From assembly GCF_004210375.1 (NCBI RefSeq), contig NC_134829.1:29156034-29220033 (forward strand): a stretch of 64,000 nucleotides of DNA, in the 5' to 3' direction. The notes under the pieces are model-generated. The model was given only the letters and a program-made list of their open reading frames with translations, ran no database searches and was not told the origin of the DNA. Every line of letters starts with the position of its first letter. The stretch's first letter is position 1. Below are positions 2,612 to 57,080 of this stretch, piece after piece. Source of the stretch: Tachypleus tridentatus (taxonomy: Eukaryota; Arthropoda; Merostomata; Xiphosura; Limulidae). Made by a program: the position numbers and the translations under genes.

Positions 2612-2920
2612 AACCCTAACTAGACCTAGTCTACTAACTGAAAAGGGTATAAACAGTTGGAAAAGTCTTATCACGATAAGCGACACTTAGTGCTTTTAAT
2701 TATTTCGAATAATGCGTACTCGATAAACAATTTTATTTTCTTATTTTGGACAAACATTTTGTAAGTCGAAAATAGACGTAATTACAACGAAAATACTGTA
2801 TAATATCTGTATTCACACGACATAACGACAAACTTTTCCAAACAAGATGTATTCTCGTATTTATTATAATGCCATACTTGAAATGTGATGTTACCTGTTC
2901 TCCAACGTTAGTGTAACTAG

Positions 2921-3075
2921 GTTTATTGTTTTTCGGTGCTATTATAACGTCTATCTGAAAACTTGATGTCTTTCCGTCAACAATATTGTAGCAACGTTTA
3001 TTGTCGTTCAGTGTTATTTTAACGTTATGCTGTAAATACCTTTCTCTGTCTGTCAACAATATTGTAGCAACGTTT
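2921..3075. repeat. Two-copy 76-bp tandem repeat inside the unit
   Basis: Segments starting GTTTATTGT at 2921 and 2996 and GTTTACAGT at 3072 each end in GTCAACAATATTGTAGCAAC, giving two diverged copies and the start of a third. The same structure is at about 7995, 13,076 and 18,141. In unit 4 the third copy still starts GTTTATTGTCAT, closer to the repeat consensus. A 116-codon minus-strand open frame spans this repeat and is probably a chance product of it. Confidence 0.8.
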
Positions 3076-3763
3076 ACAGTCATACTCTGACTGTAGAGAT
3101 ATGATATTATCTATTGTTAAACAACGTATTAGCAAAGTGTAAAAATAAAACCAATGGACAATACGTTATGACATGTCAGTAATACTATATCCGATTATAC
3201 AGTGGCGACAAATATTTGCAGCAATAACATCAGGACTGACTGGGATGCTACAGATATTTTAGCGGTTTAGACGACCTTATTCGTTCTTAAGGAGCTAGTA
3301 GAGAGATGTACTACCTTAAGGTGTGGTTATAACCTAATACGAGAAATACATTATGATCAAAATTTGAAAGTAATACTGAAATATTTCCGCCTTTATTGTA
3401 ATGTTTCGCTGCACTCGATGTCTGATAATAAAATATATCGTTTGTTAAATCCTGTCTTATGTAGAATATAAAAATTACCTGATATCAATACTATTTCACC
3501 AAAAACGTTAAATGACCGATAAGTTTTCATGCGACTTTGAGCCAAAAGCATTACTTGACAGCAGCTAATAAAACCGGAGAAAAGTTAATTAGCATCTTGT
3601 TGTGCCTTTTGTTTTTCTAATCTCCTAAAAATCTTTATTGAATCTTAAAGAATATTTTTCTGTCGCGACACTTTTCACATTGATACATTAGAATTGTATT
3701 CAGTTTATGTAATCTAGAAAGTAGGATTTGAAACATCTTACTTCTTCATATGAAAAAAATAAA

Positions 3764-3901
3764 TTTGTTTGTTTACTTATTTCTTGTTAAACACAAGCAT
3801 TCGCAATGGGCTATCTGTGTTGAACTCACTACGAATTTTGAAACCTGATTGTTTAGTGTGTTAAGTTTGTAGACTTGCCGCTGAGCTTTCGGTTGTGCTG
3901 A
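3764..3901 (-). repeat. SINE-B-like (reverse), unit 1
   Basis: On the minus strand: tRNA-like head (AGCGGCAAGTCTACAAACTT), TTTCAAAATTCGTAGTGAG, then CACAGATAGCCCATTG and an AACAAACAAA tail. The same order is seen in SINE-B copies at 50,241 and 62,305. A second, more decayed piece of the same kind may lie at 4015-4095. Confidence 0.6.
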
Positions 3902-4778
3902 CTTTATGGAGTGCAAGAAACAGACATAATGAAATACCAATGGTATTGCGATGTCATCTATTAAATCAAAAGTAAGCAAAATTTACAAGAAAAGAAAATA
4001 GAGCAAAGTTACGTTGGGATTTCTTCTGTATCCACGGCAGGACATTTAACTCCGTACTTTGATGTTTTAAGTTTGCAAGCTTAACGCTGTCAAACTGGGA
4101 AACAAATTAAAAAGAGAAAGAGAGAAATCAATAGAGGAGTGTGTTCATTTAATCTGTAAAGTTTTGAAACAGAGAATAAAAATTTCGGTTTGAGGAAATC
4201 TAGCAAAAGTCAATAAGAACGATAAAGTGATTTTCGAGTTGTATTTTAAATGCGTCATAAAGTTGTTACCTGCACACATCGATCAAACTACCCTCTAATG
4301 CTTTATGTCTCAGACCTTGAAATTATCATGAATCACAAACGTGGTTCATAATAAGCATAGCACACGAATTTTATAAAAGATGGCGAAATTCATCTTTAAA
4401 AGTAGACTTATTCTTGAAATAACAATAAAGGTCTTTAAATCAACTGATAAGAGCAAAAAAAAATTGATTCTACGTTTCTTAGAGAAAATACACCATTCGT
4501 CCATTTCTTTTCCATGTTATTACTTTCATATAAACTTTGTTTAATAGGCCTACCGGGAAAAAAAACGGTTATGCATATTTTATTCAAACATGAGCAATAC
4601 AACTAAAAAAACTCAAGTCCAGGTCTTAGAACTATTTTTATGTTAACTTTTAAAGAGAAGGAGAGACTTGATTAGTTTGTTTTTTATTTGCTTTTGGCCA
4701 AATTTCTCATCGAAACCATTTAAGCACCGAAACTTAGAGCTAAAACGGCTAGGTGTACTAACGTTTTCTTCGCTACCA

Positions 4779-4888
4779 GTTCCCCGCTTTTACAGCGGTA
4801 AGTCTTCAAATTTACAACGTTAAAACCAGGAGTTCGATTCGTCTCGGTGGACTCAGCAGAGAACTTTGGTATAAAAAAAAACACATGC
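4779..4888 (+). repeat. SINE-C (forward), unit 1
   Basis: Short tRNA-headed element: ACAGCGGTAAGTCTTCAAAT, then GTTCGATTCGTCTCGGTGGA, then CTCAGCAGA and an A-rich ACACA tail. Matches copies at 45,388 and 49,467. Confidence 0.75.
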
Positions 4889-5561
4889 TTTTTCGCTACA
4901 AACATAAGTTCTTCGAAGCCATTCCAGCCCAGTAGAAATGTTCTATTGAAGTACACAAAGTACATATTTATAACAGCGTATTTAGCCTTATTATAATTTC
5001 ACATTTCGTTACACAAAAAAAAAGACACTTTGAATATTGTACCTATACCTGGACAATAGAAACGAACGCATACTTTAATATGTTCTAGAGTAGTTTTAAA
5101 AATAATTCATGGGCATCCTTTTTTTTTCTTTTCGTTCTGAAGAAGTGTTCGAAGTCCTCAACTTTCCGCCATTGAAAACATCTGACGTCTTATGAATGCT
5201 CATTAACTGTAAAATAATTTGTAAAACTTATACTTGAAAATTTCACACTGAGTGTTCTTCATTTCTCGAGTTTCGAGTCCTCCATTGCTTCTCAATCTCG
5301 TTGTTGTACTTTGTTTCTACGTCGTGTTCTGCGACCAGTTTATTACATTTCTTAGAGTCCTTAGCCGTAGACTTGAAAATATAATATTTGCATTTGATTC
5401 GACTTTTTTCTGTACCTTTCCGATGATCTCTCTTTCCTTTTTCTAAATTAACAATTTTAATTATCTTGGATGTTAATAATTGGTGTGATACTTATACACG
5501 TGATATTGCAGTGCCATCCCGCAGTTCAAAAGAATACTAACAAGTTTTGATTCACCATTAG

Positions 5562-5831
5562 GCTTGTTTGTTTGGTTTTGAATTTCGCGCAAAACTACAA
5601 GAGTGCTATCTGCGCTAACCGTCCCTAATTTAGCAGTGTGAGACTAGAGTGAAGGCTGCTAGTCATCACTACTCATCGTCAACTACTGGGTCACTCTTTT
5701 ACCAACGAAAGTGGGATTGACCGTTACTTTATAACGTCCCCGCGGCTGAAAGGGCAAGCCTTTTTGTTACGACGGGGATTCGATTCCACGACCTTCATAT
5801 TACGAGTCGAGCGCCCTATCCACCTGACCAT
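5562..5831 (-). repeat. SINE-A (reverse), unit 2
   Basis: Orthologous to the unit 1 element at 512-771, with the 9-bp segment present. Confidence 0.85.
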
Positions 5832-6259
5832 AAAGAGTAAAATAACTAAATAAACGGGTTATATATTTATGCGGCAGTAGTGCCATCGTATGACTAAGGA
5901 TAAAACAAATGCACTCTGAATCACTCTGTGGGATTTGAAAACGCGTTTATATGTGAAAACTTCGATTATTATTGTACAAAATAAAGATGCTGAAAATGAA
6001 CACATCTAGCAACGCTTAATCAAAAATATAAAATAATTTCTTCTCCCTTCATGTGCATGAATACGTTATTCTAGTTACATTTAAAATTACACTTAAATGT
6101 AAACAAAACATAATTTGCAAACAATGGCATGCAGGCATAGTTGTTCATCAGAAGAACAGGTGTCACATCTATTAGAGTTCTTAATTTTTCTTTTCCAGTT
6201 GTTAAAGAACCCAAACGCGGTTATTCTTTCTGAGTTTGTGTACCATTCACGTACACCCG

Positions 6260-6525
6260 GGCCCGGCATGTCCAGTTGGTTAAGGCACTCGACTCCTAAT
6301 CTGAGGGGCTCGGGTTCGAATCCCCGCCACACCAAATATGTTTTCTCTCTCAGCTATGAGGGCGTTATAATGTGACGGTGAATCCCAGTATTCGTTGGTA
6401 GTCCAAGAGTTGGCAATGGGAGTTGATGACTAGCTGCTTTACCTTTAGTCTAAACTGCTAAATTAGAGACGGCTAGCGCAGATAGCCATCGTGTAACTTT
6501 GTGCGAAAATTCAAAACAAACAAAC
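6260..6525 (+). repeat. SINE-A (forward), unit 2
   Basis: Same insertion as 1201-1466 in unit 1. The tRNA-like B box is GGGTTCGAATCCC. Confidence 0.9.
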
Positions 6526-7302
6526 TCGTCCGTATTTCGTTTTATTCAGAGTAACGTACGGATGTATGAAGAGCTATCTTTCGGACCACACTGAGTTCGC
6601 CGTTTCTAAGGGAATATTTGCTCAGTCCTTTCGGTGATAGATATTTGTCAAATTCCTTCTCTCAGAGAACAGAAGATATTCCTTTAAGTGTCAGTCATGT
6701 TTGGTTGACATGCTATCAAGATTCATGTTTTGATTTGGAGTTGTTTTTATTCTCATGCGTTGGTTTTAGAAGCCACAGAACATAGAACTATCGAGGGAAA
6801 TGTTTTGATTGTTTCTTAAACTGCACTATAGGTTATCTGTAGTGTACCCGATGTAGGTGTCGAATCCGAAATTTAGTGTCGTAAGCACTTAAGCTTAATG
6901 TTGGAACATCTAGGAGCCATATTCACCATGGAGCATAAATTACACTATGCAACAGAAATTTTGCTCCTGGACAGTATGTGTTATTTCTTAATCGGCCATT
7001 GTTCCGTTCAAACTTAGCTTTTGTGACGTGGATAATGAAATTTAGAAATTAACGTTATTTTCTATGTAAAAACGTGCAAATTTGCACATTTTAATTTACA
7101 TAAGGTCTGAATAAAACAACATATGAATCATGAGTTAGATGTATTTATACTAAAGTGATACAAAAATGTTTATAAAGTGGTTGTTTTTCGAGATTTGTAA
7201 CTGTAGCGTAAAATAGTTTCACGTATCAGCCCCCAAATTTAGTCTCCCATCATGTTTTATTATACGCTCCTTGGTAGTGGCGTCCAAAATCCCTATGTCG
7301 GT

Positions 7303-7375
7303 GTCCCTGTAGCGCAGTGGATAGCGTGTTGGACTTCTAATCCAAAGGTCCCGGGTTCGACCCCCGGCAGGGATG
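7303..7375 (+). tRNA. tRNA-Arg(TCT), unit 2 copy
   Basis: A 73-nt tRNA with paired acceptor (GTCCCTG/CAGGGAT, discriminator G), anticodon stem TTGGA/TCCAA, loop CTTCTAA (anticodon TCT) and a perfect T arm CCGGG-TTCGACC-CCCGG. The T arm holds the B box GGTTCGACC. No intron and no encoded CCA. It decodes AGA arginine codons. A T-run at 7399-7403 is a plausible Pol III stop. Confidence 0.93.
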
Positions 7376-7398
7376 ATTTCCAGTGTAAATTAGCATTA

Positions 7399-7403
7399 TT
7401 TTT
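7399..7403 (+). terminator. T-run, likely Pol III stop for tRNA-Arg (unit 2)
   Basis: Five Ts, 24 nt after the tRNA 3' end. The matching place in unit 3 is interrupted. Confidence 0.5.
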
Positions 7404-7673
7404 AAGGCCACGTATGGCCAGGTGGGTTTGAGGCGTTCGACTCGTAATCTGAGGATCACGGGTTCGAACATCACACATGTTCGCCCTTTGCAGCCGTGGA
7501 GGCGTTATAACTTGACGGTGAATCCCACTATTCCTTTGTAAAAGAGTAGCCCAAGAGTTGGCGGTGAGTAGTGATTACCTTCCCTCTAGTCTTACATTGC
7601 TAAATTAGGGACGGCTGGCGCAAATACCCCACGCGAGGCTTTGCGCGAAATTGAAAACAAACCCAACCCTAAC
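7404..7673 (+). repeat. SINE-A (forward) after tRNA-Arg, unit 2
   Basis: Same insertion as 2352-2611. It carries the AATACCCCACGCGAGG variant shared only with unit 3. Confidence 0.85.
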
Positions 7674-8840
7674 TAGACCTGGTCTACTAACTGAAAAGGG
7701 TATAAACAGTTGGAAAAGTCTTATCACGATAAGCGACACTCGTTTAAAAGTCACTTTGCTTTTATGCTTTTAATTATTTCGAGTAATGCGTACTCGATAA
7801 ACAATTTTATTTTCTTATTTTGGACAAACATTTTGTAAGTCGAAAATAGACGTAATTACAACGAAAATACTGTATAATATCTGTATTCACACGACATAAC
7901 GACAAACTTTTCCAAACAAGATGTATTCTCGTATTTATTATAATGCCATACTTGAAATGTGATGTTACCTGTTCTCCAACGTTAGTGTAACTAGGTTTAT
8001 TGTTTCTCGGTGCTATTATAACGTCTATCTGAAAACTTGATGTCTTTCCGTCAACAATATTGTAGCAACGTTTATTGTCGTTCAGTGTTATTTTAACGTT
8101 ATGCTGGAAATACCTTTCTCTGTCTGTCAACAATATTGTAGCAACGTTTACAGTCATACTCTGACTGTAGAAATATGATATTATCTATTGTTAAACAACG
8201 TATTAGCAAAGTGTAAAAATAAAACCAATGGACAATACGTTATGACATGTCAGTAATACTATATCCGATTATACAGTGGCGACAAATATTTGCAGCAATA
8301 ACGTCAGGACTGACTGGGATGCTACAGATATTTTAGCGGTTTAGACGACCTTATTCGTTCTTAAAGAGCTAGTAGAGAGATGTACTACCTTAAGGTGTGG
8401 TTATAACCTAATACGAGAAATATATTATGATCAAAATTTGAAAGTAATACTGAAATATTTCCGCCTTTATTGTAATGTTTCGCTGCACTCGATGTCTGAT
8501 AATAAAATATATCGTTTGTTAAATCCTGTCTTATGCAGAATATAAAAAAATACCTGATATCAATACTATTTCACCAAAAACGTTAAATGACCGATAAGTT
8601 TTCATGCGACTTTGAGCCAAAAGCATTACTTGACAGCAGCTAATAAAACCGGAGAAAAGTTAATTAGCATCTTGTTGTGCCTTTTGTTTTTCTAATCTCC
8701 TAAAAAATCTTTATTGAATCTTAAAGAATATTTTTCTGTCGCGACACTTTTCACATTGATACATTAGAATTGTATTCAGTTTATGTAATCTAGAAAGTAG
8801 GATTTGAAACATCTTACTTCTTCATATGAAAAAAATAAAT

Positions 8841-8977
8841 TTGTTTGTTTACTTATTTCTTGTTAAACACAAGCATTCGCAATGGGCTATCTGTGTTGAA
8901 CTCACTACGAATTTTGAAACCTGATTGTTTAGTGTGATAAGTTTGTAGACTTGCCGCTGAGCTTTCGGTTGTGCTGA
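8841..8977 (-). repeat. SINE-B-like (reverse), unit 2
   Basis: Same insertion as 3764-3901. Confidence 0.6.
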
Positions 8978-9852
8978 CTTTATGGAGTGCAAGAAACAGA
9001 CATAATGAAATACCAATGGTATTGCGATGTCATCTATTAAATCAAAAGTAAGCAAAATTTACAAGAAAAGAAAATAGAGCAAAGTTACGTTGGGATTTCT
9101 TCTGTATCCACGGCAGGACATTTAACTCCGTACTTTGATGTTTTAAGTTTGCAAGCTTAACGCTGTCAAACTGGGAAACAAATTAAAAAGAGAAAGAGAG
9201 AAATCAATAGAGGAGTGTGTTCATTTAATCTGTAAAGTTTTGAAACAGAGAATAAAAATTTCGGTTTGAGGAAATCTAGCAAAAGTCAATAAGAACGATA
9301 AAGTGATTTTCAAGTTGTATTTTAAATGCGTCATAAAGTTGTTACCTGCACACATCGATCAAACTACCCTCTAATGCTTTATGTCTCAGACCTTGAAATT
9401 ATCATGAATCACAAACGTGGTTCATAATAAGCATAGCACACGAATTTTATAAAAGATGGCGAAATTCATCTTTAAAAGTAGACTTATTCTTGAAATAACA
9501 ATAAAGGTCTTTAAATCAACTGATAAGAGCAAAAAAAAATTGATTCTACGTTTCTTAGAGAAAATACACCATTCGTCCATTTCTTTTCCATGTTATTACT
9601 TTCATATAAACTTTGTTTAATAGGCCTACCGGGAAAAAAAACGGTTATGCATATTTTATTCAAACATGAGCAATACAACTAAAAAAACTCAAGTCCAGGT
9701 CTTAGAACTATTTTTATGTTAACTTTTAAAGAGAAGGAGAGACTTGATTAGTTTTTTTTTATTTGCTTTTGGCCAAATTTCTCATCGAAACCATTTAAGC
9801 ACCGAAACTTAGAGCTAAAACGGCTAGGTGTACTAACGTTTTCTTCGCTACC

Positions 9853-9962
9853 AGTTCCCCGCTTTTACAGCGGTAAGTCTTCAAATTTACAACGTTAAAA
9901 CCAGGAGTTCGATTCGTCTCGGTGGACTCAGCAGAGAACTTTGGTATAAAAAAAAACACATG
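9853..9962 (+). repeat. SINE-C (forward), unit 2
   Basis: Same insertion as 4779-4888. Confidence 0.75.
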
Positions 9963-10637
9963 CTTTTTCGCTACAAACATAAGTTCTTCGAAGCCATTCC
10001 AGCCCAGTAGAAATGTTCTATTGAAGTACACAAAGTACATATTTATAACAGCGTATTTAGCCTTATTATAATTTCACATTTCGTTACACAAAAAAAAAGA
10101 CACTTTGAATATTGTACCTATACCTGAACAATAGAAACGAACGCATACTTTAATATCTTCTAGAGTAGTTTTAAAAATAATTCATGGGCATCCTTTTTTT
10201 TTCTTTTCGTTCTGAAGAAGTGTTCGAAGTCCTCAACTTTCCGCCATTGAAAACATCTGACGTCTTATGAATGCTCATTAACTGTAAAATAATTTGTAAA
10301 ACTTATACTTGAAAATTTCACACTGAGTGTTCTTCATTTCTCGAGTTTCGAGTCCTCCATTGCTTCTCAATCTCGTTGTTGTACTTTGTTTCTACGTCGT
10401 GTTCTGCGACCAGTTTATTACATTTCTTAGAGTCCTTAGCCGTAGACTTGAAAATATAATATTTGCATTTGATTCGACTTTTTTTCTGTACCTTTCCGAT
10501 GATCTCTCTTTCCTTTTTCTAAATTAACAATTTTAATTATCTTGGATGTTAATAATTGGTGTGATACTTATACACGTGATATTGCAGTGCCATCCCGCAG
10601 TTCAAAAGAATACTAACAAGTTTTGATTCACCATTAG

Positions 10638-10908
10638 GCTTGTTTGTTTGGTTTTGAATTTCGCGCAAAACTACAAGAGTGCTATCTGCGCTAACCGTCC
10701 CTAATTTAGCAGTGTGAGACTAGAGTGAAGACTGCTAGTCATCACTACTCATCGTCAACTACTGGGTCACTCTTTTACCAACGAAAGTGGGATTGACCGT
10801 TACTTTATAACGTCCCCGCGGCTGAAAGGGCAAGCCTTTTTTGTTACGACGGGGATTCGATTCCACGACCTTCATATTACGAGTCGAGCGCCCTATCCAC
10901 CTGACCAT
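10638..10908 (-). repeat. SINE-A (reverse), unit 3
   Basis: Same insertion as 512-771. Confidence 0.85.
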
Positions 10909-11337
10909 AAAGAGTAAAATAACTAAATAAACGGGTTATATATTTATGCGGCAGTAGTGCCATCGTATGACTAAGGATAAAACAAATGCACTCTGAATCA
11001 CTCTGTGGGATTTGAAAACGCGTTTATATGTGAAAACTTCGATTATTATTGTACAAAATAAAGATGCTGAAAATGAACACATCTAGCAACGCTTAATCAA
11101 AAATATAAAATAATTTCTTCTCCCTTCATGTGCATGAATACGTTATTCTAGTTACATTTAAAAATTACACTTAAATGTAAACAAAACATAATTTGCAAAC
11201 AATGGCATGCAGGCATAGTTGTTCATCAGAAGAACAGGTGTCACATCTATTAGAGTTCTTAATTTTTCTTTTCCAGTTGTTAAAGAACCCAAACGCGGTT
11301 ATTCTTTCTGAGTTTGTGTACCATTCACGTACACCCG

Positions 11338-11603
11338 GGCCCGGCATGTCCAGTTGGTTAAGGCACTCGACTCCTAATCTGAGGGGCTCGGGTTCGAATC
11401 CCCGCCACACCAAATATGTTTTCTCTCTCAGCTATGAGGGCGTTATAATGTGACGGTGAATCCCAGTATTCGTTGGTAGTCCAAGAGTTGGCAATGGGAG
11501 TTGATGACTAGCTGCTTTACCTTTAGTCTAAACTGCTAAATTAGAGACGGCTAGCGCAGATAGCCATCGTGTAACTTTGTGCGAAAATTCAAAACAAACA
11601 AAC
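11338..11603 (+). repeat. SINE-A (forward), unit 3
   Basis: Same insertion as 1201-1466. Confidence 0.9.
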
Positions 11604-12382
11604 TCGTCCGTATTTCGTTTTATTCAGAGTAACGTACGGATGTATGAAGAGCTATCTTTCGGACCACACTGAGTTCGCCGTTTCTAAGGGAATATTTGCT
11701 CAGTCCTTTCGGTGATAGATATTTGTCAAATTCCTTCTCTCAGAGAACAGAAGATATTCCTTTAAGTGTCAGTCATGTTTGGTTGACATGCTATCAAGAT
11801 TCATGTTTTGATTTGGAGTTGTTTTTATTCTCATGCGTTGGTTTTAGAAGCCACAGAACATAGAACTATCGAGGGAAATGTTTTGATTGTTTCTTAAACT
11901 GCACTATAGGTTATCTGTAGTGTACCCGATGTAGGTGTCGAATCCGAAATTTAGTGTCGTAAGCACTTAAGCTTAATGTTGGAACATCTAGGAGCCATAT
12001 TCACCATGGAGCATAAATTACACTATGCAACAGAAATTTTGCTCCTGGACAGTATGTGTTATTTCTTAATCGGCCATTGTTCCGTTCAAACTTAGCTTTT
12101 GTGACGTGGATAATGAAATTTAGAAATTAACGTTATTTTCTATGTAAAAACGTGCAAATTTGCACATTTTAATTTACATAAGGTCTGAATAAAACAACAT
12201 ATGAATCATGAGTTAGATGTATTTATACTATAGTGATAGAAAAATGTTTATAAAGTGGTTGTTTTTCGAGATTTGTAACTGTAGCGTAAAATAGTTTCAC
12301 GTATCAGCCCCCAAATTTAGTCTCCCATCATGTTTTTATTATACGCTCCTTGGTAGTGGCGTCCAAAATCCCCTATGTCGGT

Positions 12383-12455
12383 GTCCCTGTAGCGCAGTGG
12401 ATAGCGTGTTGGACTTCTAATCCAAAGGTCCCGGGTTCGACCCCCGGCAGGGATG
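12383..12455 (+). tRNA. tRNA-Arg(TCT), unit 3 copy
   Basis: Same 73-nt sequence as the unit 2 copy, with all four stems paired, anticodon TCT and intact A and B boxes. Unlike the other units, the downstream T-run is broken by an A (TTATTATTT), so the usual four-or-more-T Pol III stop is missing just downstream. Confidence 0.93.
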
Positions 12456-12483
12456 ATTTCCAGTGTAAATTAGCATTATTATT

Positions 12484-12744
12484 TAAGGCCACGTATGGCC
12501 AGGTGGGTTTGAGGCGTTCGACTCGTAATCTGAGGATCACGGGTTCGAACATCACACATGTTCGCCCTTTGCAGCCGTGGAGGCGTTATAACTTGACGGT
12601 GAATCCCACTATTCCTTTGTAAAAGAGTAGCCCAAGAGTTGGCGGTGAGTAGTGATTACCTTCCCTCTAGTCTTACATTGCTAAATTAGGGACGGCTGGC
12701 GCAAATACCCCACGCGAGGCTTTGCGCGAAATTGAAAACAAACC
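12484..12744 (+). repeat. SINE-A (forward) after tRNA-Arg, unit 3
   Basis: Same insertion as 2352-2611. With the upstream T-run broken in this unit, a Pol III transcript from the tRNA gene could run into this SINE. Confidence 0.85.
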
Positions 12745-13920
12745 CAACCCTAACTAGACCTGGTCTACTAACTGAAAAGGGTATAAACAGTTGGAAAAGT
12801 CTTATCACGATAAGCGACACTCGTTTAAAAGTCACTTTGCTTTTATGCTTTTAATTATTTCGAGTAATGCGTACTCGATAAACAATTTTATTTTCTTATT
12901 TTGGACAAACATTTTGTAAGTCGAAAATAGACGTAATTACAACGAAAATACTGTATAATATCTGTATTCACACGACATAACGACAAACTTTTCCAAACAA
13001 GATGTATCCTCGTATTTATTATAATGCCATACTTGAAATGTGATGTTACCTGTTCTCCAACGTTAGTGTAACTAGGTTTATTGTTTCTCGGTGCTATTAT
13101 AACGTCTATCTGAAAACTTGATGTCTTTCCGTCAACAATATTGTAGCAACGTTTATTGTCGTTCAGTGTTATTTTAACGTTATGCTGGAAATACCTTTCT
13201 CTGTCTGTCAACAATATTGTAGCAACGTTTACAGTCATACTCTGACTGTAGAAATATGATATTATCTATTGTTAAACAACGTATTAGCAAAGTGTAAAAA
13301 TAAAACCAATGGACAATACGTTATGACATGTCAGTAATACTATATCCGATTATACAGTGGCGACAAATATTTTCAGCAATACCATCAGGACTGATTGGGA
13401 TGCTACAGATATTTTAGCGGTTTAGACGACCTTATTCGTTCTTAAAGAGCTAGTAGAGAGATGTACTACCTTAAGGTGTGGTTATAACCTAATACGAGAA
13501 ATACATTATGATCAAAATTTGAAAGTAATACTGAAATATTTCCGGCTTTATTGTAATGTTTCGCTGCACTCGATGTCTGATAATAAAATATATCGTTTGT
13601 TAAATCCTGTCTTATGCAGAATATAAAAAATTACCTGATATCAATACTATTTCACCAAAAACGTTAAATGACCGATAAGTTTTCATGCGACTTTGAGCCA
13701 AAAGCATTACTTGACAGCAGCTAATAAAACCGGAGAAAAGTTAATTAGCATCTTGTTGTGCCTTTTGTTTTTCTAATCTCCTAAAAATCTTTATTGAATC
13801 TTAAAGAATATTTTTCTGTCGCGACACTTTTCACATTGATACATTAGAATTGTATTCAGTTTATGTAATCTAGAAAGTAGGGTTTGAAACATCTTACTTC
13901 TTCATATGAAAAAAATAAAT

Positions 13921-14057
13921 TTGTTTGTTTACTTATTTCTTGTTAAACACAAGCATTCGCAATGGGCTATCTGTGTTGAACTCACTACGAATTTTGAAAC
14001 CTGATTGTTTAGTGTGATAAGTTTGTAGACTTGCCGCTGAGCTTTCGGTTGTGCTGA
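13921..14057 (-). repeat. SINE-B-like (reverse), unit 3
   Basis: Same insertion as 3764-3901. Confidence 0.6.
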
Positions 14058-14933
14058 CTTTATGGAGTGCAAGAAACAGACATAATGAAATACCAATGGT
14101 ATTGCGATGTCATCTATTAAATCAAAAGTAAGCAAAATTTACAAGAAAAGAAAATAGAGCAAAGTTACGTTGGGATTTCTTCTGTATCCACGGCAGGACA
14201 TTTAACTCCGTACTTTGATGTTTTAAGTTTGCAAGCTTAACGCTGTCAAACTGGGAAACAAATTAAAAGAGAAAGAGAGAAATCAATAGAGGAGTGTGTT
14301 CATTTAATCTGTAAAGTTTTGAAACAGAGAATAAAAATTTCGGTTTGAGGAAATCTAGCAAAAGTCAATAAGAACGATAAAGTGATTTTTCAAGTTGTAT
14401 TTTAAATGCGTCATAAAGTTGTTACCTGCACACATCGATCAAACTACCCTCTAATGCTTTATGTCTCAGACCTTGAAATTATCATGAATCACAAACGTGG
14501 TTCATAATAAGCATAGCACACGAATTTTATAAAAGATGGCGAAATTCATCTTTAAAAGTAGACTTATTCTTGAAATAACAATAAAGGTCTTTAAATCAAC
14601 TGATAAGAGCAAAAAAAAATTGATTCTACGTTTCTTAGAGAAAATACACCATTCGTCCATTTCTTTTCCATGTTATTACTTTCATATAAACTTTGTTTAA
14701 TAGGCCTACCGGGAAAAAAAACGGTTATGCATATTTTATTCAAACATGAGCAATACAACTAAAAAAACTCAAGTCCAGGTCTTAGAACTATTTTTATGTT
14801 AACTTTTAAAGAGAAGGAGAGACTTGGTTAGTTTTTTTCTTATTTGCTTTTGGCCAAATTTCTCATCGAAACCATTTAAGCACCGAAATTTAGAGCAAAA
14901 ACGGCTAGGTGTACTAACGTTTTCTTCGCTACC

Positions 14934-15043
14934 AGTTCCCCGCTTTTACAGCGGTAAGTCTTCAAATTTACAACGTTAAAACCAGGAGTTCGATTCGACT
15001 CAGGTGGACCAGCAGAGAACTTTGGTATAAAAAAAAACACATG
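14934..15043 (+). repeat. SINE-C (forward), unit 3
   Basis: Same insertion as 4779-4888, with private changes just after the B box (GACTCAGGTGGACCAGC). Confidence 0.75.
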
Positions 15044-15716
15044 CTTTTTCGCTACAAACATAAGTTCTTCGAAGCCATTCCAGCCCAGTAGAAATGTTCT
15101 ATTGAAGTACACAAAGTACATATTTATAACAGCGTATTAAGCCTTATTATAATTTCACATTTCGTTACACAAAAAAAAAGCCACTTTGAATATTGTACCT
15201 ATACCTGGACAATAGAAACGAACGCAGACTTTGATATGTGCTAGAGTAGTTTTAAAAATAATTCATGGGCATCCTTTTTTTTTCTTTTCGTTCTGAAGAA
15301 GTGTTTGAAGTCCTCAACTTTCCGCCATTGAAAACATCTGACGTCTTATGAATGCTCATTAACTGTAAAATAATTTGTAAAACTTATACTTGAAAATTTC
15401 ACACTGAGTGTTCTTCATTTCTCGGGTTTCGAGTCCTCCATTGCTTCTCAATCTCGTTGTTGTACTTTGTTTCTACGTCGTGTTCTGCGACCAGTTTATT
15501 ACATTTTTTAGAGTCCTTAGCCGTAGACTTGAAAATATAATATTTGCATTTGATTCGACTTTTTTCTGTACCTTTTTGATGATCCCTCTTTCCTTTTCTA
15601 AATTAACAATTTTAATTATCTTGGATGTTAATAATTGGTGTGATACTTATACACGTGATATTGCAGTGCCATCCCGCAGTTCAAAAGAATACTAACAAGT
15701 TTTGATTCACCATTAG

Positions 15717-15986
15717 GCTTGTTTGTTTGGTTTTGAATTTCGCGCAAAACTACAAGAGTGCTATCTGCGCTAACCGTCCCTAATTTAGCAGTGTGAGACT
15801 AGAGTGAAGGCTGCTAGTCATCACTACTCATCGTCAACTACTGGGTCACTCTTTTACCAACGAAAGTGGGATTGACCGTTACTTTATAACGTCCCCGCGG
15901 CTGAAAGGGCAAGCCTTTTTGTTACGACGGGGATTCGATTCCACGACCTTCATATTACGAGTCGAGCGCCCTATCCACCTGACCAT
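15717..15986 (-). repeat. SINE-A (reverse), unit 4
   Basis: Same insertion as 512-771. Confidence 0.85.
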
Positions 15987-16415
15987 AAAGAGTAAAATAA
16001 CTAAATAAACGGGTTATATATTTATGCGGCAGTAGTGCCATCGTATGACTAAGGATAAAACAAATGCACTCTGAATCACTCTGTGGGATTTGAAAACGCG
16101 TTTATATGTGAAAACTTCGATTATTATTGTACAAAATAAAGATTCTGAAAAAGAACACATCTAGCAACGCTTAATCAAAATTATAAAATAATTTCTTCTC
16201 CCTTCATGTGCATCAATACGTTATTCTAGTTACATTTAAAAATTACACTTAAATGTAAACAAAACATAATTTGCAAACAATGGCATGCAGGCATAGTTGT
16301 TCATCAGAAGAACAGGTGTCACATCTATTAGAGTTCTTAATTTTTCTTTTCCAGTTGTTAAAGAACCCAAACGCGGTTATTCTTTCTGAGTCTGTGTACC
16401 ATTCACGTACACCCG

Positions 16416-16681
16416 GGCCCGGCATGTCCAGTTGGTTAAGGCACTCGACTCCTAATCTGAGGGGCTCGGGTTCGAATCCCCGTCACACCAAATATGTTCT
16501 CTCTTTCAGCTATGAGAGCGTTATAATGTGTCGGTGAATCCCAGTATTCGTTGGTAGTCCAAGAGTTGGCAATGGGAGTTGATGACTAGCTGCTTTACCT
16601 TTAGTCTAAACTGCTAAATTAGAGACGGCTAGCGCAGATAGCCATCGTGTAACTTTGTGCGAAAATTCAAAACAAACAAAC
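16416..16681 (+). repeat. SINE-A (forward), unit 4
   Basis: Same insertion as 1201-1466. Confidence 0.9.
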
Positions 16682-17469
16682 TCGTCCGTATTTCGTTTTA
16701 TTCAGAGTAACGTACGGATGTATGAAGAGCTATCTTTCGGACCACACTGAGTTCGCCGTTTCTAAGGGAATATTTGCTTAGTGCTTTCGGTGATAGATAT
16801 TTGTCAAATTCCTTCTCTCAGAGAACAGAAGATATTCCTTTAAGTGTCAGTCATGTTTGGTTGACATGCTATCAAGATTCATGTTTTGATTTGGAGTTGT
16901 TTTTATTCTCATGCGTTGGTTTTAGAAGCCACAGAACATAGAACTATCGAGGGAAATGTTTTGATTGTTTCTTAAACTGCACTATAGGTTATCTGTAGTG
17001 TACCCGATGTAGGTGTCGAATCCGAAATTTAGTGTCGTAAGCACTTAAGCTTAATGTTGGAACACCTAGGAGCCATATTCACCATGGAGCATAAATTACA
17101 CTATGCAACAGAAATTTTGCTCCTGGACAGTATGTGTTATTTCTTAATCGGCCATTGTTCCGTTCAAACTTAGCTTTTGTGACGTGGATAATGAAATTTA
17201 GAAATTAACGTTATTTTCTATGTAAAAACGTGCAAATTTGCACATTTTAATTTACATAAGGTCTGAATAAAACAACATATGAATCATGAGTTAGATGTAT
17301 TTATACTAAAGTGATACAAAAATGAACAAAAATGTTTATAAAGTGGTTGTTTTTCGAGATTTGTAACTGTAGCGTAAATGAGTTTCACGTATCAGCCCCC
17401 AAATTTAGTCTCCCATCATGTTTTTATTATACGCTCCTTGGTAGTGGCGTCCAAAATCCCTATGTCGGT

Positions 17470-17542
17470 GTCCCTGTAGCGCAGTGGATAGCGTGTTGGA
17501 CTTCTAATCCAAAGGTCCCGGGTTCGACCCCCGGCAGGGATG
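17470..17542 (+). tRNA. tRNA-Arg(TCT), unit 4 copy
   Basis: Same 73-nt sequence as the unit 2 copy: paired acceptor, D, anticodon (TCT) and T arms, discriminator G, no intron. A five-T run follows at 17,566-17,570. Confidence 0.93.
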
Positions 17543-17565
17543 ATTTCCAGTGTAAATTAGCATTA

Positions 17566-17570
17566 TTTTT
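17566..17570 (+). terminator. T-run, likely Pol III stop for tRNA-Arg (unit 4)
   Basis: Five Ts, 24 nt after the tRNA 3' end, as in units 1 and 2. Confidence 0.5.
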
Positions 17571-17831
17571 AAGGCCACGTATGGCCAGGTGGGTTTGAGG
17601 CGTTCGACTCGTAATCTGAGGATCACGGGTTCGAACATCACACATGTTCGCCCTTTGCAGCCGTGGAGGCGTTATAACTTGACGGTGAATCCCACTATTC
17701 CTTTGTAAAAGAGTAGCCCAAGAGTTGGCGGTGAGTAGTGATTACCTTCCCTCTAGTCTTACATTGCTAAATTAGGGACGGCTGGCGCAAATAGCCCACG
17801 CGAAGCTTTGCGCGAAATTGAAAACAAACCC
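17571..17831 (+). repeat. SINE-A (forward) after tRNA-Arg, unit 4
   Basis: Same insertion as 2352-2611. It carries the AGCCCACGCGAAGC variant shared with unit 1. Confidence 0.85.
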
Positions 17832-18639
17832 AACCCTAACTAGACCTGGTCTACTAACTGAAAAGGGTATAAACAGTTGGAAAAGTCTTATCACGATAAG
17901 CGACACTTAGTGCTTTTAATTATTTCGAGTAATGCGTACTCGATAAACAATTTTATTTTCTTATTTTGGACAAACATTTTGTAAGTCGAAAATAGACGTA
18001 ATTACAACGAAAATACTGTATAATATCTGTATTCACACGACATAACGACAAACTTTTCCAAACAAGATGTATTCTCGTATTTATTATAATGCCATACTTG
18101 AAATGTGATGTTACCTGTTCTCCAACGTTAGTGTAACTAGGTTTATTGTTTCTCGGTGCTATTATAACGTCTATCTGAAAACTTGATGTCTTTCCGTCAA
18201 CAATATTGTAGCAACGTTTATTGTCGTTCAGTGTTATTTTAACGTTATGCTGGAAATACCTTTCTCTGTCTGTCAACAATATTGTAGCAACGTTTATTGT
18301 CATTCTGTATCATTAAATGTCATACTCTGACTGTTGAAATATGATACTATCTATTGTTAAACAACATATTAGCAAAGTATAAAAATAAAACTAATGCACA
18401 ATCCGTTTATCCAGTGGCGACAAATATTTTGAGCAATACCATGAGCTCATCAGGACTGACTGGGATGCTACAGATATTTTAGCGGTTTAGACGACCTTAT
18501 TCGTTCTTAAAGAGCTAGTAGAGAGATGTACTACCTTAAGGTGTGGTTATAACCTAATACGAGAAATACATTATGATCAAAAATGAAAGTAATATTGAAA
18601 TATTTTCAGCTTTATTGTAATGTTTCGCTGTTTTTGTTA

Positions 18640-18985
18640 TGGTAAAGTGATATAAAAATGAACAAAAATGTTTAGAAAGGAGTAGGATTTCTAGATTTGT
18701 GACTGTAGCGTAAATCAGTTTCAAGTATCAGCCCCCAAATATAATCTTTCATCATGTTTTTATTATAGGGTTCTTCGTATCGGCGTTTCAAGTGTACTGT
18801 ATCGGTGTACCTGTAGCGCAGTAGACAGCGTGTTGTATTTTTAATTCAAAAGTCCAGGATTCGACCACCGGCAGGTATGATTAAGAAAGTAAACTAGCAC
18901 TATTTGTAAGGTTAAGAATGGCCAGATATATTTGAGGCGTTCGACTTGTAATCTGAGGGTCACGGGTTCTCGAACATCAAACATG
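18640..18985 (+). repeat. Old diverged fragment of the array unit
   Basis: From AAAGTGATATAAAAATGAAC onward the sequence follows unit positions about 2,090-2,425 with many substitutions: flank, tRNA-Arg position, then the head of the following SINE-A. It retains the AATGAAC segment lost from units 2 and 3, so that loss is derived. It is a fossil copy at the edge of the array and is much older than units 1-4. Confidence 0.85.
18807..18879 (+). pseudogene. tRNA-Arg pseudogene in the fossil unit
   Basis: Lies where the tRNA-Arg gene should be and keeps the 73-nt spacing, but is scattered with changes. The acceptor reads GTACCTG/CAGGTAT. The anticodon stem is TTGTA/TTCAA with a mismatch. The loop is TTTTTAA, so the anticodon position reads TTT rather than TCT. 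The T arm is CCAGG-ATTCGACC-ACCGG-like and weakened. Almost certainly non-functional. Confidence 0.85.
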
Positions 18986-22865: not shown

Positions 22866-23010
22866 GGATATGAACAAAGTTTGTACCTGTATTCCAGAAT
22901 GGCTGGTATGGGCATTAACACTTTTATTGATAAGCAGAGAACAACGTTTCGGCTTTCTCAGGCCATTTTCAGGTTAGCAATTCCTGTACCTGTTATCAGT
23001 TAGGGTGCCA
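22866..23010 (-). mobile_element. Penelope-like hammerhead-bearing repeat fragment
   Basis: On the minus strand: AACCTGAAAATGGCCTGAGA, AAGCC, GAAACGTTGTTCTC. This is the order of a hammerhead core: CTGANGA, stem II, then GAAAC with a tiny ACGT stem III. Hammerhead motifs are known from the terminal repeats of Penelope-like retroelements. The first box reads CTGAAAA, so the catalytic G of the core is changed and this copy is probably inactive. Boundaries are approximate. Confidence 0.5.
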
Positions 23011-28075: not shown

Positions 28076-29826
28076 ATAATCGGCTGGCTTATATTTTTGA
28101 AGAATGTTATCGTTAGGCTTAAGTCTACTTGCAACAGTTGATAATTTTAGTAATACAAAATTTATCTGTATATAAGTAACTCCACAAAATAAGGTCAGTT
28201 AACGTAAATAAACTATTTTTGACCAGATAACGAATGACAGATCAAAATCTATTTATGTAAAAGTGAGTAATCTCTAGTGTTTCTGTTCACTGTGAAAAAT
28301 CTGAGTTAGCGTTAACCTTCTCCATATTGTTACAATTTACGATCAGTTAAGCTTACATTATACGGTTTCATTATAATGTTGAAATGTTGACCTAATATTT
28401 CTGACAAAAAACACACTAGACAGCATATTTTTTTTCTCAAATATCTCGTAATTCTCTCCATTACAGATTTCAGATCAAGAGTTGGCGTAAAATTAGTTTT
28501 TAATTTTTATCTTTCGTCTTTCACACAGTAAGTCACTATCTAATAGGTCTTTCTATCAGTATTGGATTTACGTAGTTTGACTGGACGATTAGAGATTCAA
28601 ATAGAAGAAAAATTATATTTTAAATGCTATTTTGACACACAACTGGTATGGAATCCGTAATAAACAAGCTCAGGGAAATTGTGAAACAAATATCCTACAG
28701 CGGAGCATTGTCTTCATCTTTTTATTAAACCTTTTACTTACTAATGTTTTGGCAGTTTTAATGGTTTAATTTGTCAAAATTTGCTATTCTAATATTACTA
28801 TTATTGACTTTAAAGAAAACATTCGAGTTTTTAACAGATCGGAAAAGTTTTCATGTTGATTTAAGAAACGACTTCATAATTTGCATGTTTAAACATAATA
28901 AATAACAGGACAAAATTTTTGATAATAATTTCGGTTTGATTAGAAACATACGTAATGTGGACTTCAAAACATAATTAAAGAATAAATTGTTATTATCAGT
29001 GAATTTATTTGTTTCTTTATGAAGTCCATAAAGAAACACTGATATAGTAGGTACAGAAGCGAAATACATCTACGCCTATGTACAAGAATATCTAAATTCG
29101 TACATGATGGCCATCAGAAACATAACATCTTGTTGGATGTCAAGGTCTTATCTAAATATTATAATATGCTAGAACGAGAGATTATAGAATCTATTTTAAT
29201 CTGGAAATTAAGCCTGAAAATAAACAAATATGAAAGCTAGCTTCTAGCTCAGAGATATTGACCGTAATATTAAGACTGTAATTTTGCAAAATCTCTATAC
29301 ACTTTAACAATGAATAATACATCTATAGAAGCATTTTGACACTTTAATGTGTATGTATTTATATAATAAAATAGAAGAATACACAGGTATAGATTCAAGT
29401 GTAAAGTATATCGTATAAGTGACGTATTTTCTTCTAAATCCTATGTTTTTAACAGTTCACTTGTTGATTTATATACAAAAACATCGAAAGCCAGCACATA
29501 CGTCATTTCTCTATCTTTTCTATCGTTTGTAAGAACTTATTACAAACTAGATCCTAATTTAGGACAGCAACTAGCTTACATTCAAGGCCAAATCACAGCA
29601 GCAGGTGTTTATAGCTCACATTTCTAGCGTGTGAATGTTAATGAACTAACAACAAACATCTATTAAATCTATAAAGTAACAAATATATATTAATTAGTAC
29701 TCAAATTATTATTTCAATTATTCTTAACGTATCGAGTGTCTATACGGAGAAAAAACCTACAAACTATGCTTTTTGTAATTAAATGAAAATATAGCCTAAA
29801 GGTACTTTGTGAGCTTTATGACTTAC
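28076..29826. other. AT-rich DNA, nothing recognised
   Basis: No supported features. Confidence 0.5.
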
Positions 29827-31197: not shown

Positions 31198-31473
31198 GCC
31201 CGGCATGGCCAGGTGGGTTAAGGCGTTCGACTCATAATCTGAGGGTCGCGGGTTCGAGTCCCCGTCGCACCAAACAAGCTCGCCTTTTCAGCCGTGGGGG
31301 CATTATATTGTGACTGTCAATCCCACTATTCGTTGGTAGAAAAGTAGTCCAAGAGTTGGCGATGGGTGACGATAACTAGCTGCCTTCCGTCTATTCTTAC
31401 ACTGCTAAATTAGGAACGGCTAGCGCAGATAGCCTTCGTGTAGCTTTGTGCGAAATTCCAAAACAAACAAACA
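31198..31473 (+). repeat. SINE-A (forward), near-consensus
   Basis: One of the best-preserved copies: GCCCGGCATGGCCAGGTGGG head, anticodon loop CTCATAA, B box GGGTTCGAGTCCC, full body, AAAACAAACAAAC tail. ATTTCACGAGT at 31,181-31,191 and 31,474-31,484 is the target duplication, with a short filler before the head. Confidence 0.92.
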
Positions 31474-43712: not shown

Positions 43713-43990
43713 GTTTGTGGTTTGATTTGAATTTCGTACAAAACTACACGAGGGATATTTGTGCTAGCTGTCCCTAATTTAGCAGTGTAAGACTAGAGGG
43801 AAGGCAGATAGTCATCACCACCCACCACCAACTCTTGGGCTACTCTTTTACCAACAAATAGTGGAATTGACCATAACATTATAATGTCCCTATGGCTGAA
43901 AGGGTGAGCATGTTTGGTGCGACCAGGATTCGAACCCGTGATCCTCAGATTATGAGTCTAATACCTTAACCCACATGGCCATTCTGGGCC
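43713..43990 (-). repeat. SINE-A (reverse)
   Basis: Full-length: head GGCCCAGAATGGCCATGTGG at 43,990, B box on the minus strand GGGTTCGAATCCT, tail near 43,715. Confidence 0.9.
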
Positions 43991-44610: not shown

Positions 44611-45340
44611 TAGGTCCTCCTATAAACGTCACTTTCACCACTACTCTCTTCTAAGGCTCTTGCAGATGTCTAACAATAGATCTTTCTCTCACCACTGTTT
44701 TATCCACTGCTCTTCTTTGAGGTTCCTGATGATGTCTAACAATAGATCCTTTTCCTCACCACTGTTTTATCCACTACTCTCTTCTGAGGTTCCTAAAGAT
44801 GCCTAACAATAGATCCTTCCTCACCACTGTTTTATCCACTACTCTCTTCTGAGGTTCCTAAAGATGCCTAACAATAGATCCTTTCCCTCACCACTGTTTT
44901 ATCCACTACTCTCTTCTGAGGTTCCTAAAGATGCCTAACAATAGATCCTTTCCTCACCACTGTTTTATCCACTACTCTCTTCTGAGGTTCCTAAAGATGC
45001 CTAACAATAGATCCTTTCCCTCACCACTGTTTTATCCACTACTCTCTTCTGAGGTTCCTAAAGATGCCTAACAATAGATCCTTTCCCTCACCACTGTTTT
45101 ATCCACTACTCTCTTCTGAGGTTCCTAAAGATGCCTAACAATAGATCCTTTCCCTCACCACTGTTTTGTCCACTACTCTCTTCTGAGGTTCCTAAAGATG
45201 CCTAACAATAGATCCTTTCCCTCATCACTGTTTTATCCACTACTCTCCTCTGAGGTTCCTAAAGATGCCTGACAATAGATCCTTTCCCTCACCACTGTTT
45301 TGTCCACTACTCTCTTCTGAAGTTTCTGAAGATGAGCAAA
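44611..45340. repeat. 67-bp minisatellite, 11 copies
   Basis: Unit runs CTCTTCTGAGGTTCCTAAAG, ATGCCTAACAATAGATCC, TTTCCCTCACCACTGTTTTA, TCCACTA. The GATGCC landmark recurs at about 44,667, 44,734, 44,801, 44,866, 44,933, 44,999, 45,066, 45,133, 45,200, 45,267 and 45,334. Central units are nearly identical and outer units diverge, as expected for a slippage or unequal-exchange array. The 67-bp length breaks any reading frame. Confidence 0.95.
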
Positions 45341-53388: not shown

Positions 53389-53664
53389 GGCCCGGCGTGG
53401 CGAGGTTGGTTAAGCCATTCGACTCGTAATCTAAGGGTCTCGGGTTCGCATCCCTGTAGCACCAAAAATGCTCGCCCTTTCAGCCATAGGGGCGTTATAA
53501 TGTGACGGTCAGTCCCACTATTCGTTGGTAAAAAGTAGCCCAAGAGTTGGCAGTGGGTGGTGATGACTAGCTGCCTTCCCTCTAGTCTTACACTATTAAA
53601 TTAGGGACGACTAGCGCAGATAGCCCTTGTGTAGCTCTGCGCGAAAATTCAAAATAAACAAAAT
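53389..53664 (+). repeat. SINE-A (forward)
   Basis: Full-length: GGCCCGGCGTGGCGAGGTTG head, B box GGGTTCGCATCCC, full body, tail AAAATAAACAAAATAA. AAATACAT on both sides may be a short target duplication. Confidence 0.9.
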
Positions 53665-53873: not shown

Positions 53874-54243
53874 AAACGTACCAGAGTTTCAGTGATGACG
53901 AGAAACCCACTTGTTGAGAAATTTATATGCAAAAACGGCTCGTTTGGGCTGAGAAAACACTTTACATAGAAGAGCGAACAACGTTTCGACCTTCTTCGGT
54001 CATCGTCAGGTTCACAAAGAAAGAGGTAACTGACCGGAAGCTGACCACATGTTTGAAAGGGGTTGTGTAAAAACATCTAATACCGCCCTCTACATTTCGA
54101 CACACAGTTACACAACCCCTTTCAAACATGTGGTCAGCTTCCGGTCAGTTACCTCTTCTTGTGAACCTGACATTGAAGAAGGTCGAAACGTTGTTCGCTC
54201 TTCTATGTAAAGTGTTTTCTCAGCCCAAACGTACCAGAGTTTC
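53874..54243. mobile_element. Hammerhead-bearing foldback insertion (Penelope-like)
   Basis: Two long inverted arms (53,941-54,070 and 54,108-54,231) separated by a 37-bp loop. The whole is bounded by the 17-bp direct repeat AAACGTACCAGAGTTTC at 53,874-53,890 and 54,227-54,243, the first five bases of which also end the right arm. The left arm, read on the minus strand, contains CTGACGA, stem GACC/GGTC, GAAAC, ACGTTGTTC, a hammerhead-type core. About 50 bp between the left direct repeat and the arm has no inverted partner. The arrangement suggests a retroposed, end-truncated Penelope-type element joined in inverted orientation, but no reverse transcriptase is present to prove it. The 126-codon minus-strand frame over it is not a gene. 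Confidence 0.7.
53976..54014 (-). ncRNA. Hammerhead ribozyme-like motif
   Basis: Minus strand: GAAC, then CTGACGA (54,009-54,003), GACC/GGTC stem II (54,001-53,998 with 53,991-53,988) around a short GAAGAA loop, then GAAAC (53,987-53,983) and GTTGTTC. GAAC can pair with GTTC as a short stem I, and A-CG-T gives a one-pair stem III, the minimal form known for Penelope-element hammerheads that act as dimers. An unpaired T sits between the first box and stem II. The corresponding site in the right arm (54,166-54,190) has lost part of the core. Activity is untested. Confidence 0.5.
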
Positions 54244-56460: not shown

Positions 56461-56797
56461 TAGACAAGCTAGTCCTAATACACATTTACGCGAAGTTCTG
56501 AAACAAAGAAATTTCGTATTAAACATTATTTTGAAATACAAGTCAGTTCAAGAGAGTTTATTTGTTACTTTATATATATATATACACACAGCTGCATAAT
56601 GGAGTGCTTCATCTGTGTCCACGAGGGATACTGAAACTCACAATTTCTGAAATTTACCGTTAAGCCTTAACTCAGTCCAAATCGCTTTACTTTGTTTTGG
56701 ATTTCCGACTTTTTTCCTATAACATGGAGAATATGAACAAACATACGCTTCTATTGTTTATCTTGATGCAATAAAATGTAAATTTTAGCATGTACTT

Positions 56798-57069
56798 GTT
56801 TTTTTTCAATTTCGCACAAAGCTACTCGAGGGCTATCTGTGCTAGCCGTCCCTAATATATCAGTGTAAGACTAGAGGGAAGGCAGCTAGTCATCACTACC
56901 CACCGCCAACTCTTGGGCTATTCTTTTACCAACGAATAGTGGAATTGACTGTCACATTATAACGCCCCCACGGCTGAAAAGGCGAGCATGTTTGGTGCGA
57001 CCGGGATTCGAACTCGCGACCCTCGGATTTCGAGTCGAACGCCTTAACACGCTTGGCCATGGCGTGCCA
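56798..57069 (-). repeat. SINE-A (reverse) with 8-bp target duplication
   Basis: Well-preserved reverse copy, head GGCACGCCATGGCCAAGCGT at 57,069, B box GAGTTCGAATCCC. ATGTACTT at 56,790-56,797 and 57,073-57,080. Confidence 0.9.
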
Positions 57070-57080
57070 AGTATGTACTT

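What the first reader, a model, noticed from the sequence alone, without database searches (positions are those of the whole stretch)
53874..54243. Foldback insertion with 17-bp target duplication and a hammerhead-type ribozyme core
Inverted arms of about 125-130 bp, a 37-bp loop and a 17-bp direct repeat show a single insertion event. The minus strand of the left arm has CTGACGA, a GACC/GGTC stem and GAAAC with the minimal ACGT stem III. Penelope-like retroelements are known to carry hammerheads in their terminal repeats. The compact inverted form here has no reverse transcriptase and may be a non-autonomous hairpin derivative.
Basis: partly seen in the sequence, partly recalled or inferred. 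Interest (0 to 1): 0.72.

Follow-up and report, generated by a model that had tools for sequence, protein, structure and literature searches.

The report
Hairpin-shaped Penelope retroelement insertion
This is a dead fragment of a very common Penelope-type jumping gene, most likely copied into both cut DNA strands at once so that it forms a hairpin, and the relatives sampled from the same genome show a strict one-end-of-each-kind pattern that bears on how these elements insert themselves.

Summary
In detail: a 17-bp direct repeat flanks two inverted arms (130 aligned bp, 93% identical) with 37 bp between them. The arms are the 3' end of an abundant Penelope-like element (PLE): 12,533 copies of its 36-bp core with at most 1 mismatch; reverse transcriptase and GIY-YIG domains in longer copies. 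It is not a mobile foldback family: its inner junction occurs once in 2.17 Gb. It is one head-to-head, doubly 5'-truncated PLE insertion; among listed close neighbours 42 of 52 are head-to-head, none tail-to-tail. The left arm has hammerhead core letters, but with an extra U before stem II and a loopless stem III; Rfam reports no hammerhead, and the right arm's core is broken. Main new result: 42 of 43 independent head-to-head insertions with a target duplication have one outer end at site I (..GCATATAAA) and one at site II (..CATCACTGA, 33 nt further); none is I+I or II+II. The exception is this window: site II plus an internal stop. Best reading: both target strands are primed, one from each start site. 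Key PLE papers were not held, so novelty of the rule is unproven.

The parts
53874..53890 (.). left copy of the 17-bp direct repeat (target site duplication plus end microhomology)
53889..54070 (-). left arm: PLE 3' fragment, reference positions 2604-2785, 100% identical to the L077 copy; outer end at site II (..CATCACTGA)
53980..54009 (-). hammerhead-like core CTGACGA-T-GACC-GAAGAA-GGTC-GAAACGTT in the left arm; GTGAAC of stem I at 54010-54015; not matched by Rfam
54071..54231 (+). right arm: PLE 3' fragment, reference positions 2567-2733, 94.6% identical; outer end 19 nt short of site I at an AAACG microhomology with the target
54071..54107 (+). 37-bp 'loop': the part of the right arm that reaches further upstream than the left arm; ordinary PLE sequence
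54070..54071 (.). inner (5'-5') junction of the two fragments; occurs once in the genome
   Evidence: (1 match with up to 3 mismatches)
54167..54189 (+). damaged core in the right arm (CTGACATTGAAGAAGGTCGAAAC); this variant is found once in the genome
54227..54243 (.). right copy of the 17-bp direct repeat

Best explanation
The feature is one remnant, without coding sequence, of an endonuclease-bearing Penelope-like retroelement, made in a single event. The PLE protein cut both target strands about 13 bp apart (inferred from the duplications) and let both freed 3' ends prime reverse transcription, so each side of the break received an antisense cDNA that starts at the element's 3' end. The two cDNAs stopped early (about 180 and 165 nt here) and their far ends were joined with no visible homology, giving a head-to-head hairpin. 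In the family the two primings use the two different start sites, I and II, one per target strand. In this copy the left arm starts at site II; the right one starts 19 nt inside site I, where the target primer end can pair with AAACG. SHOWN: family identity, single unique junction, target duplications, the one-I-one-II pattern in the insertions read, correlated arm lengths, shared rare variants of the two arms. INFERRED: order of events, that both cDNAs come from one RNA or from sister RNAs of one locus, and any role of the hammerhead-like motif.
For: Family and copy number. RT and GIY-YIG: (RVT_1 in 4 of 7 frames, GIY-YIG in 1 of 7). Orientation: 42 of 52 adjacent listed copies within 6 kb are head-to-head, 0 tail-to-tail, 10 in the same direction (for contig C1, for the C2 part). 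End rule: 31 independent insertions in the first set and 11 of 11 fetched after the rule was seen. A uniform recount by presence of the tail gave exactly one tail in 44 of 44 (these 42, L070 and the window). Unique junction; varied junctions. Arm lengths correlate, Spearman 0.82, n = 23. Arms of one insertion share rare variants 2.28 per kb against 0.31 in cross pairs and differ 5.5 against 17.4 per kb (19 insertions). Independent biochemistry on an anole PLE (PMC11167929, text parts 1-2 of 4 and passages read): both strands cleaved and extended, two internal RT start sites that bound the 'tail'.
Against: The window's own right end is not at site I, and its two arms are not closer to each other than to other copies (3 of 124 mismatches against a pooled 2.0%; L035 likewise; 17 of 19 insertions go the other way). 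Solo insertions with a duplication but one visible arm exist (L050/L052 and L053 at site I, L010 at site II), so dual priming is not the only route. In the anole assay both strands used the start sites without visible difference, which does not predict a strict one-of-each rule. L062 has a 473-nt gap in one arm only. Without the short-armed insertions the arm-length correlation weakens (Spearman 0.63, n = 17) and the median-distance test is not significant (P 0.16). Arm similarity could also come from gene conversion between the arms.
Confidence: 0.85

Rival explanations
1. Self-priming: one cDNA (or an antisense transcript) folds back on itself and is copied into a hairpin, which is then inserted. 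This is the model proposed for bdelloid Penelope elements in PMC3846280.
For: Near-palindromic short forms and correlated arm lengths; the published proposal (passages read).
Against: A folded-back copy cannot contain sequence beyond its template's start, yet in 21 of 31 insertions the arm that stops nearer the 3' end is the one ending at site II, which carries 33 nt absent from the longer site-I arm. In my reading self-priming on an antisense template predicts equal outer ends; 0 of 44 rows have equal ends.
Confidence: 0.07
2. A mobile foldback or MITE-like family: the hairpin itself is the transposing unit, moved by PLE or transposase proteins.
For: Inverted arms, flanking duplication, many similar-looking hairpins.
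Against: The junction is unique (1 match with up to 3 mismatches in 2.17 Gb); the other pairs read have their own truncation points, apart from four pairs with identical flanks that look like segmental copies (L062/L063, L035/L036, L049/L051, L087/L088); outer ends are not inverted copies of each other (I versus II).
Confidence: 0.03
3. Two separate PLE copies landed head-to-head by two successive insertions.
For: PLEs are very common here.
Against: One exact duplication encloses both arms; 42 other pairs show the same with one end of each type; 0 of 52 close neighbours are tail-to-tail.
Confidence: 0.02
4. An active hammerhead (retrozyme-like) element whose circular or dimeric RNA produces the inverted form.
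For: Left arm holds the core letters; PLE hammerheads with minimal stem III are reported to cleave as dimers (title in reference lists and one passage; the paper itself is not held).
Against: No Rfam hammerhead at E<=10 (no positive control); extra U next to stem II; lowest-energy fold of the monomer pairs core bases; right-arm core broken; inverted arms are explained without it; in the anole PLE hammerhead mutants did not change insertion in vitro.
Confidence: 0.05

Closest known systems
Endonuclease-bearing Penelope/Poseidon-type PLEs (e.g. Poseidon of Anolis, PMC11167929; Penelope families of Adineta vaga, PMC3846280)
   Same: RT plus GIY-YIG, pLTRs in tandem or inverted arrangement, target duplications, a 'tail' on one inverted pLTR, hammerhead motif next to two internal RT start sites; site II here lies about 117 nt from the ATG of the hammerhead motif, against 111-118 nt into the ORF in the anole element (my arithmetic).
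   Different: This copy is only two 3' fragments, about 340 bp in all, without coding sequence. In the sampled insertions of this genome the tail is not optional but present on exactly one of the two ends (44 of 44 rows). The start sites lie in front of the long frame that I read as beginning MSELAYR, not inside it.
L1 twin priming (recalled, not fetched)
   Same: Two target 3' ends prime cDNAs that are joined in inverted order inside one target duplication.
   Different: In L1 the two segments are non-overlapping parts of one RNA; here both arms start at the same RNA 3' region and overlap.
Minimal PLE hammerheads / retrozymes (PMC6155905 and PMC7229834, passages read)
   Same: CUGACGA..GAAAC core, minimal stem III.
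   Different: Extra U before stem II, not recognised by Rfam; arms inverted, not small tandem repeats.

Membership tests
Penelope-like element (truncated copy) | Sequence identity to the ends of RT/GIY-YIG elements in the same genome | tested here: met
   Arms 100% and 94.6% identical to the L077 copy, which has RVT_1; GIY-YIG in L079
Penelope-like element (truncated copy) | Own RT and endonuclease genes | tested here: not met
   Both arms begin downstream of the RT-bearing part (reference 2567 and 2604); so it is filed as a remnant, not as an autonomous element
Penelope-like element (truncated copy) | 3' end at a family end site, with target duplication | tested here: met
   Left end at site II, 17-bp repeat; the right end stops 19 nt short of site I
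Hammerhead ribozyme | Core letters CUGANGA..GAAA..UH (recalled consensus) | tested here: met
   Left arm only; right arm broken
Hammerhead ribozyme | Three helices, stem II abutting the core | tested here: not met
   Extra U between core and GACC/GGUC; stem III ACGU has no loop in cis
Hammerhead ribozyme | Match to a curated covariance model | tested here: not met
Hammerhead ribozyme | Self-cleavage | not testable with these tools
   Needs a transcript
Mobile foldback / MITE family | Same hairpin at many loci with different duplications | tested here: not met
   Junction found once

The most novel reading that the evidence does not exclude
Each PLE integration is a paired reaction on a single RNA molecule (or a locked pair of sister RNAs). 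One protein subunit starts at site I on one target strand and the other starts at site II on the opposite strand. The long-known optional 'tail' is therefore the footprint of the second start, and head-to-head insertions are the normal product rather than an accident.
Probability: 0.4. Interest if true: 0.75.

Novelty: new member of a known kind. Interest (0 to 1): 0.5.

Why it matters
The insertion itself is ordinary. The family statistics are not: how PLEs insert is an open question (PMC11167929 says further steps remain to be validated), and the ideas in print that I read (self-priming; internal initiation at two sites on both strands) make different predictions about outer ends. A one-site-I, one-site-II pattern in 42 of 43 insertions, with correlated arm lengths and shared rare variants, argues for paired priming of both target strands. 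It gives a simple count that can be repeated in any PLE-rich genome.

Tried and rejected
A DNA search of the genome with the arm gave nothing, not even the window itself; the tool says it skips very common words, so exact patterns were used instead. A gapped hairpin pattern was not accepted. A PDB search with one RT frame gave no match. Overall identity of the two arms did not decide between one and two RNAs, so mismatches only and shared rare variants were used. Rfam's microRNA matches on the window are below the curated cut-offs and are what a long near-perfect hairpin would give. Papers on PLE hammerheads and PLE structure by Luense et al., Cervera and De la Pena, Arkhipova et al. (Terminons) and Schostak et al. 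are not held.

Rows left out of the 42/43 count: likely segmental duplicates L063, L036, L051, L088; L070 (I+II but duplication with 2 mismatches in 13); L066, L041, L009, L015, L018 (no clear duplication or end); L083 and L085 inner pairs (both arms run on through site II into a tandem unit; the outer ends of L083, read later as L105/L106, are I+II and are counted; those of L085 were not fetched); L054 (right arm also runs on) and L001, L012, L016, L017, L019 (an outer end or partner not seen); L047, L048, L057, L060, L020, L030 and the solos L010, L050/L052, L053 (no second arm seen by BLAST). Weak spots inside the 42: in L100/L101 the duplication lies in a tandem repeat of the target; in L005, L006 and L049 the wide recount window picked an inner repeat, and the duplication rests; three of the later 11 (3015918, L098/L099, L100/L101) were read by eye after the script misplaced an end; L103/L104 ends 3 nt short of site II; the right arm of L043 had been seen before that test.

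Full report
What is there. The window lies in a 2.17-Gb genome (G000, contig C5), by its repeats an animal (inference). At 53874-54243 an exact 17-bp repeat encloses two inverted arms with 37 bp between them. Elsewhere in the window only weak matches to the arm were found: 40 bp at 22936-22975 and 29 bp at 29458-29482 (E 7e-5 and 0.01; only the first against the longer reference).

What it is made of. A pattern search for the arm's 36-bp core with at most 1 mismatch finds 6,240 + 6,293 copies in the genome; a 70-bp pattern with up to 3 mismatches finds 1,839 + 1,845; the reversed control patterns find none. A second subfamily has 1,664 + 1,634 exact copies of a 56-bp pattern. Of seven open frames taken from longer copies, four match RVT_1 (E 2.9e-12 to 2.4e-11) and one GIY-YIG (E 8.9e-5, 23.2 bits against a cut-off of 22.6). 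Tandem copies run from one unit's end region, through about 60 bp, into the next unit, as described for PLE pLTRs. So the arms are the 3' ends of an endonuclease-bearing Penelope-like element. Against one natural copy (2,787 bp of L077), the left arm is positions 2604-2785 in reverse at 100% and the right arm is 2567-2733 at 94.6%; the 37-bp loop is simply the longer upstream reach of the right arm.

One event, not a family of hairpins. The left-arm/right-arm junction occurs once in the genome with up to 3 mismatches. The lesion in the right arm's core also occurs once (up to 1 mismatch). In the other regions read each pair has its own two truncation points, apart from four likely segmental duplicates. 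Of 36 joints, 24 abut or share 1-11 bp and 12 hold 2-55 bp of filler.

Head-to-head is the rule. The tools list only the first 100 places per pattern. On contig C1 (84 of the 100 listed places, all 100; 252 distinct copies) 39 of 45 neighbours within 6 kb are head-to-head (3' ends outward), 6 are in the same direction and none is tail-to-tail. The 16 places on C2, first left out, add 3 head-to-head and 4 same-direction pairs: 42 of 52 in all, none tail-to-tail. Segmental duplicates are not removed from these counts. Among the 30 loci that cut out in genome order I count about 21 independent insertions (my reading): 13 head-to-head, 6 without a visible second arm, 2 unclear.

The end rule. Outer ends fall, within a few nt, at two sites: I (reference 2752..GCATATAAA) and II (2785..CATCACTGA), 33 nt apart; exact ends are blurred by letters shared with the duplication. 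For every head-to-head insertion with both outer ends seen and a target duplication, I noted the pair of ends. First set: 22, all I+II. I then fetched 11 more as a test, nine of them from the second-subfamily list: 11 of 11 are I+II (three read by eye, one ending 3 nt short of II). Total 42 I+II, 0 I+I, 0 II+II, plus this window (II + a stop 19 nt inside I). A uniform recount that asks only whether the 33-nt tail is present gives exactly one tail in 44 of 44 rows (the 42, L070 and the window). If ends were chosen independently at 50:50, 42 of 42 would have p about 5e-13. The search patterns would not hide I+I or II+II. Patterns would hide arms that stop well before site I, as the window's right arm does; one search's would not. 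Twenty-five exact duplications listed (edges trimmed by eye) are 11-17 bp long, 16 of them 13 bp, and 76% A+T.

What the rule says. With antisense cDNA, a head-to-head insert means that both freed target 3' ends were extended along the element RNA from its 3' region. Fold-back copying of one cDNA cannot give this: in 21 of 31 insertions (L070 included, L078 not) the shorter-reaching arm is the one with the extra tail, which the longer arm does not contain. The lengths of the two arms are correlated (Spearman 0.82, n = 23, p = 2e-6; within 60 nt in 10 of 23 against 3.8 expected on shuffling); with the short-armed insertions removed the correlation is 0.63 (n = 17) and the median-distance test fails (P 0.16). 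Over 19 insertions the two arms share rare variants seven times more often than arms of different insertions and differ three times less; own-pair mismatch is below the pooled rate in 17 of 19, not in L035 and the window. This fits one RNA, or sister RNAs of one locus, serving both strands; simultaneous elongation stopped at one time would also correlate the lengths, and gene conversion could add to the similarity.

Literature. PMC11167929 (parts 1-2 of 4 and passages read) shows for an anole PLE that both strands are cut and extended, that RT starts at two internal sites bounding the 'tail', and that its hammerhead cleaves only with protein present and is not needed for insertion in vitro. 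PMC3846280 (passages read; [quoted passage not shown] Thus the asymmetry was seen before as an option. I did not find the strict one-of-each rule in seven searches (listings) or in the passages read, but key PLE papers are not held, so novelty of the rule is not established.

The ribozyme. The left arm has the core letters and a 6-pair stem I with one G-U pair (GUGAAC/GUUCGC), but a U intervenes between the core and stem II, stem III is a bare ACGU that could only pair between two molecules, the lowest-energy monomer fold pairs core bases, and no Rfam hammerhead is reported at E<=10. The right arm is broken. A motif of the PLE hammerhead type, of untested activity, is the most that can be said; nothing here shows that it causes the hairpin form. 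Many arms begin at 2652-2663, the upstream foot of stem I; part of this is a selection edge, since one search's pattern starts at about 2662, but arms found's pattern show it too. Unexplained.

Noticed in passing
window 1-18630: Tandem units of about 5.08 kb (about 3.7 copies, 96-98% identical), each full one with a tRNA-Arg (TCT) gene; a further, diverged tRNA match at 18807-18879.
   Followed up: no
window 22936-22975 (-): A second PLE-like end motif (CTGAAAATGGCC..GCCGAAACGTTGTTC) with a different stem II; if both are related, the stem is kept while the hammerhead core is not.
   Followed up: partly
window 31198-31473, 43715-43990, 53389-53663, 56796-57079 and others: Dispersed 270-bp repeat, 76-86% identical, SINE-like; Rfam tRNA match at 43922-43982 inside one copy. 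It resembles a horseshoe-crab SINE as I recall it.
   Followed up: no
window 44638-45334: 67-bp tandem array, 10.5 copies, 94% matches.
   Followed up: no
L071, L073, L074, L082, L050, L053, L030 and others (reference 2652-2663): Cluster of 5' truncation points at the upstream foot of the hammerhead stem I, not at the predicted cleavage site; partly a selection edge of the pattern.
   Followed up: partly
L083, L105, L106 (C1:125225570-125232250): What looks like a head-to-head pair of tandem dimers, still with one site-I and one site-II outer end and a 13-bp duplication.
   Followed up: yes
L062/L063, L035/L036, L049/L051, L087/L088: Same PLE insertions with the same target duplications at two places of contig C1: likely segmental duplications of the surrounding DNA, L087/L088 inverted.
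   Followed up: no
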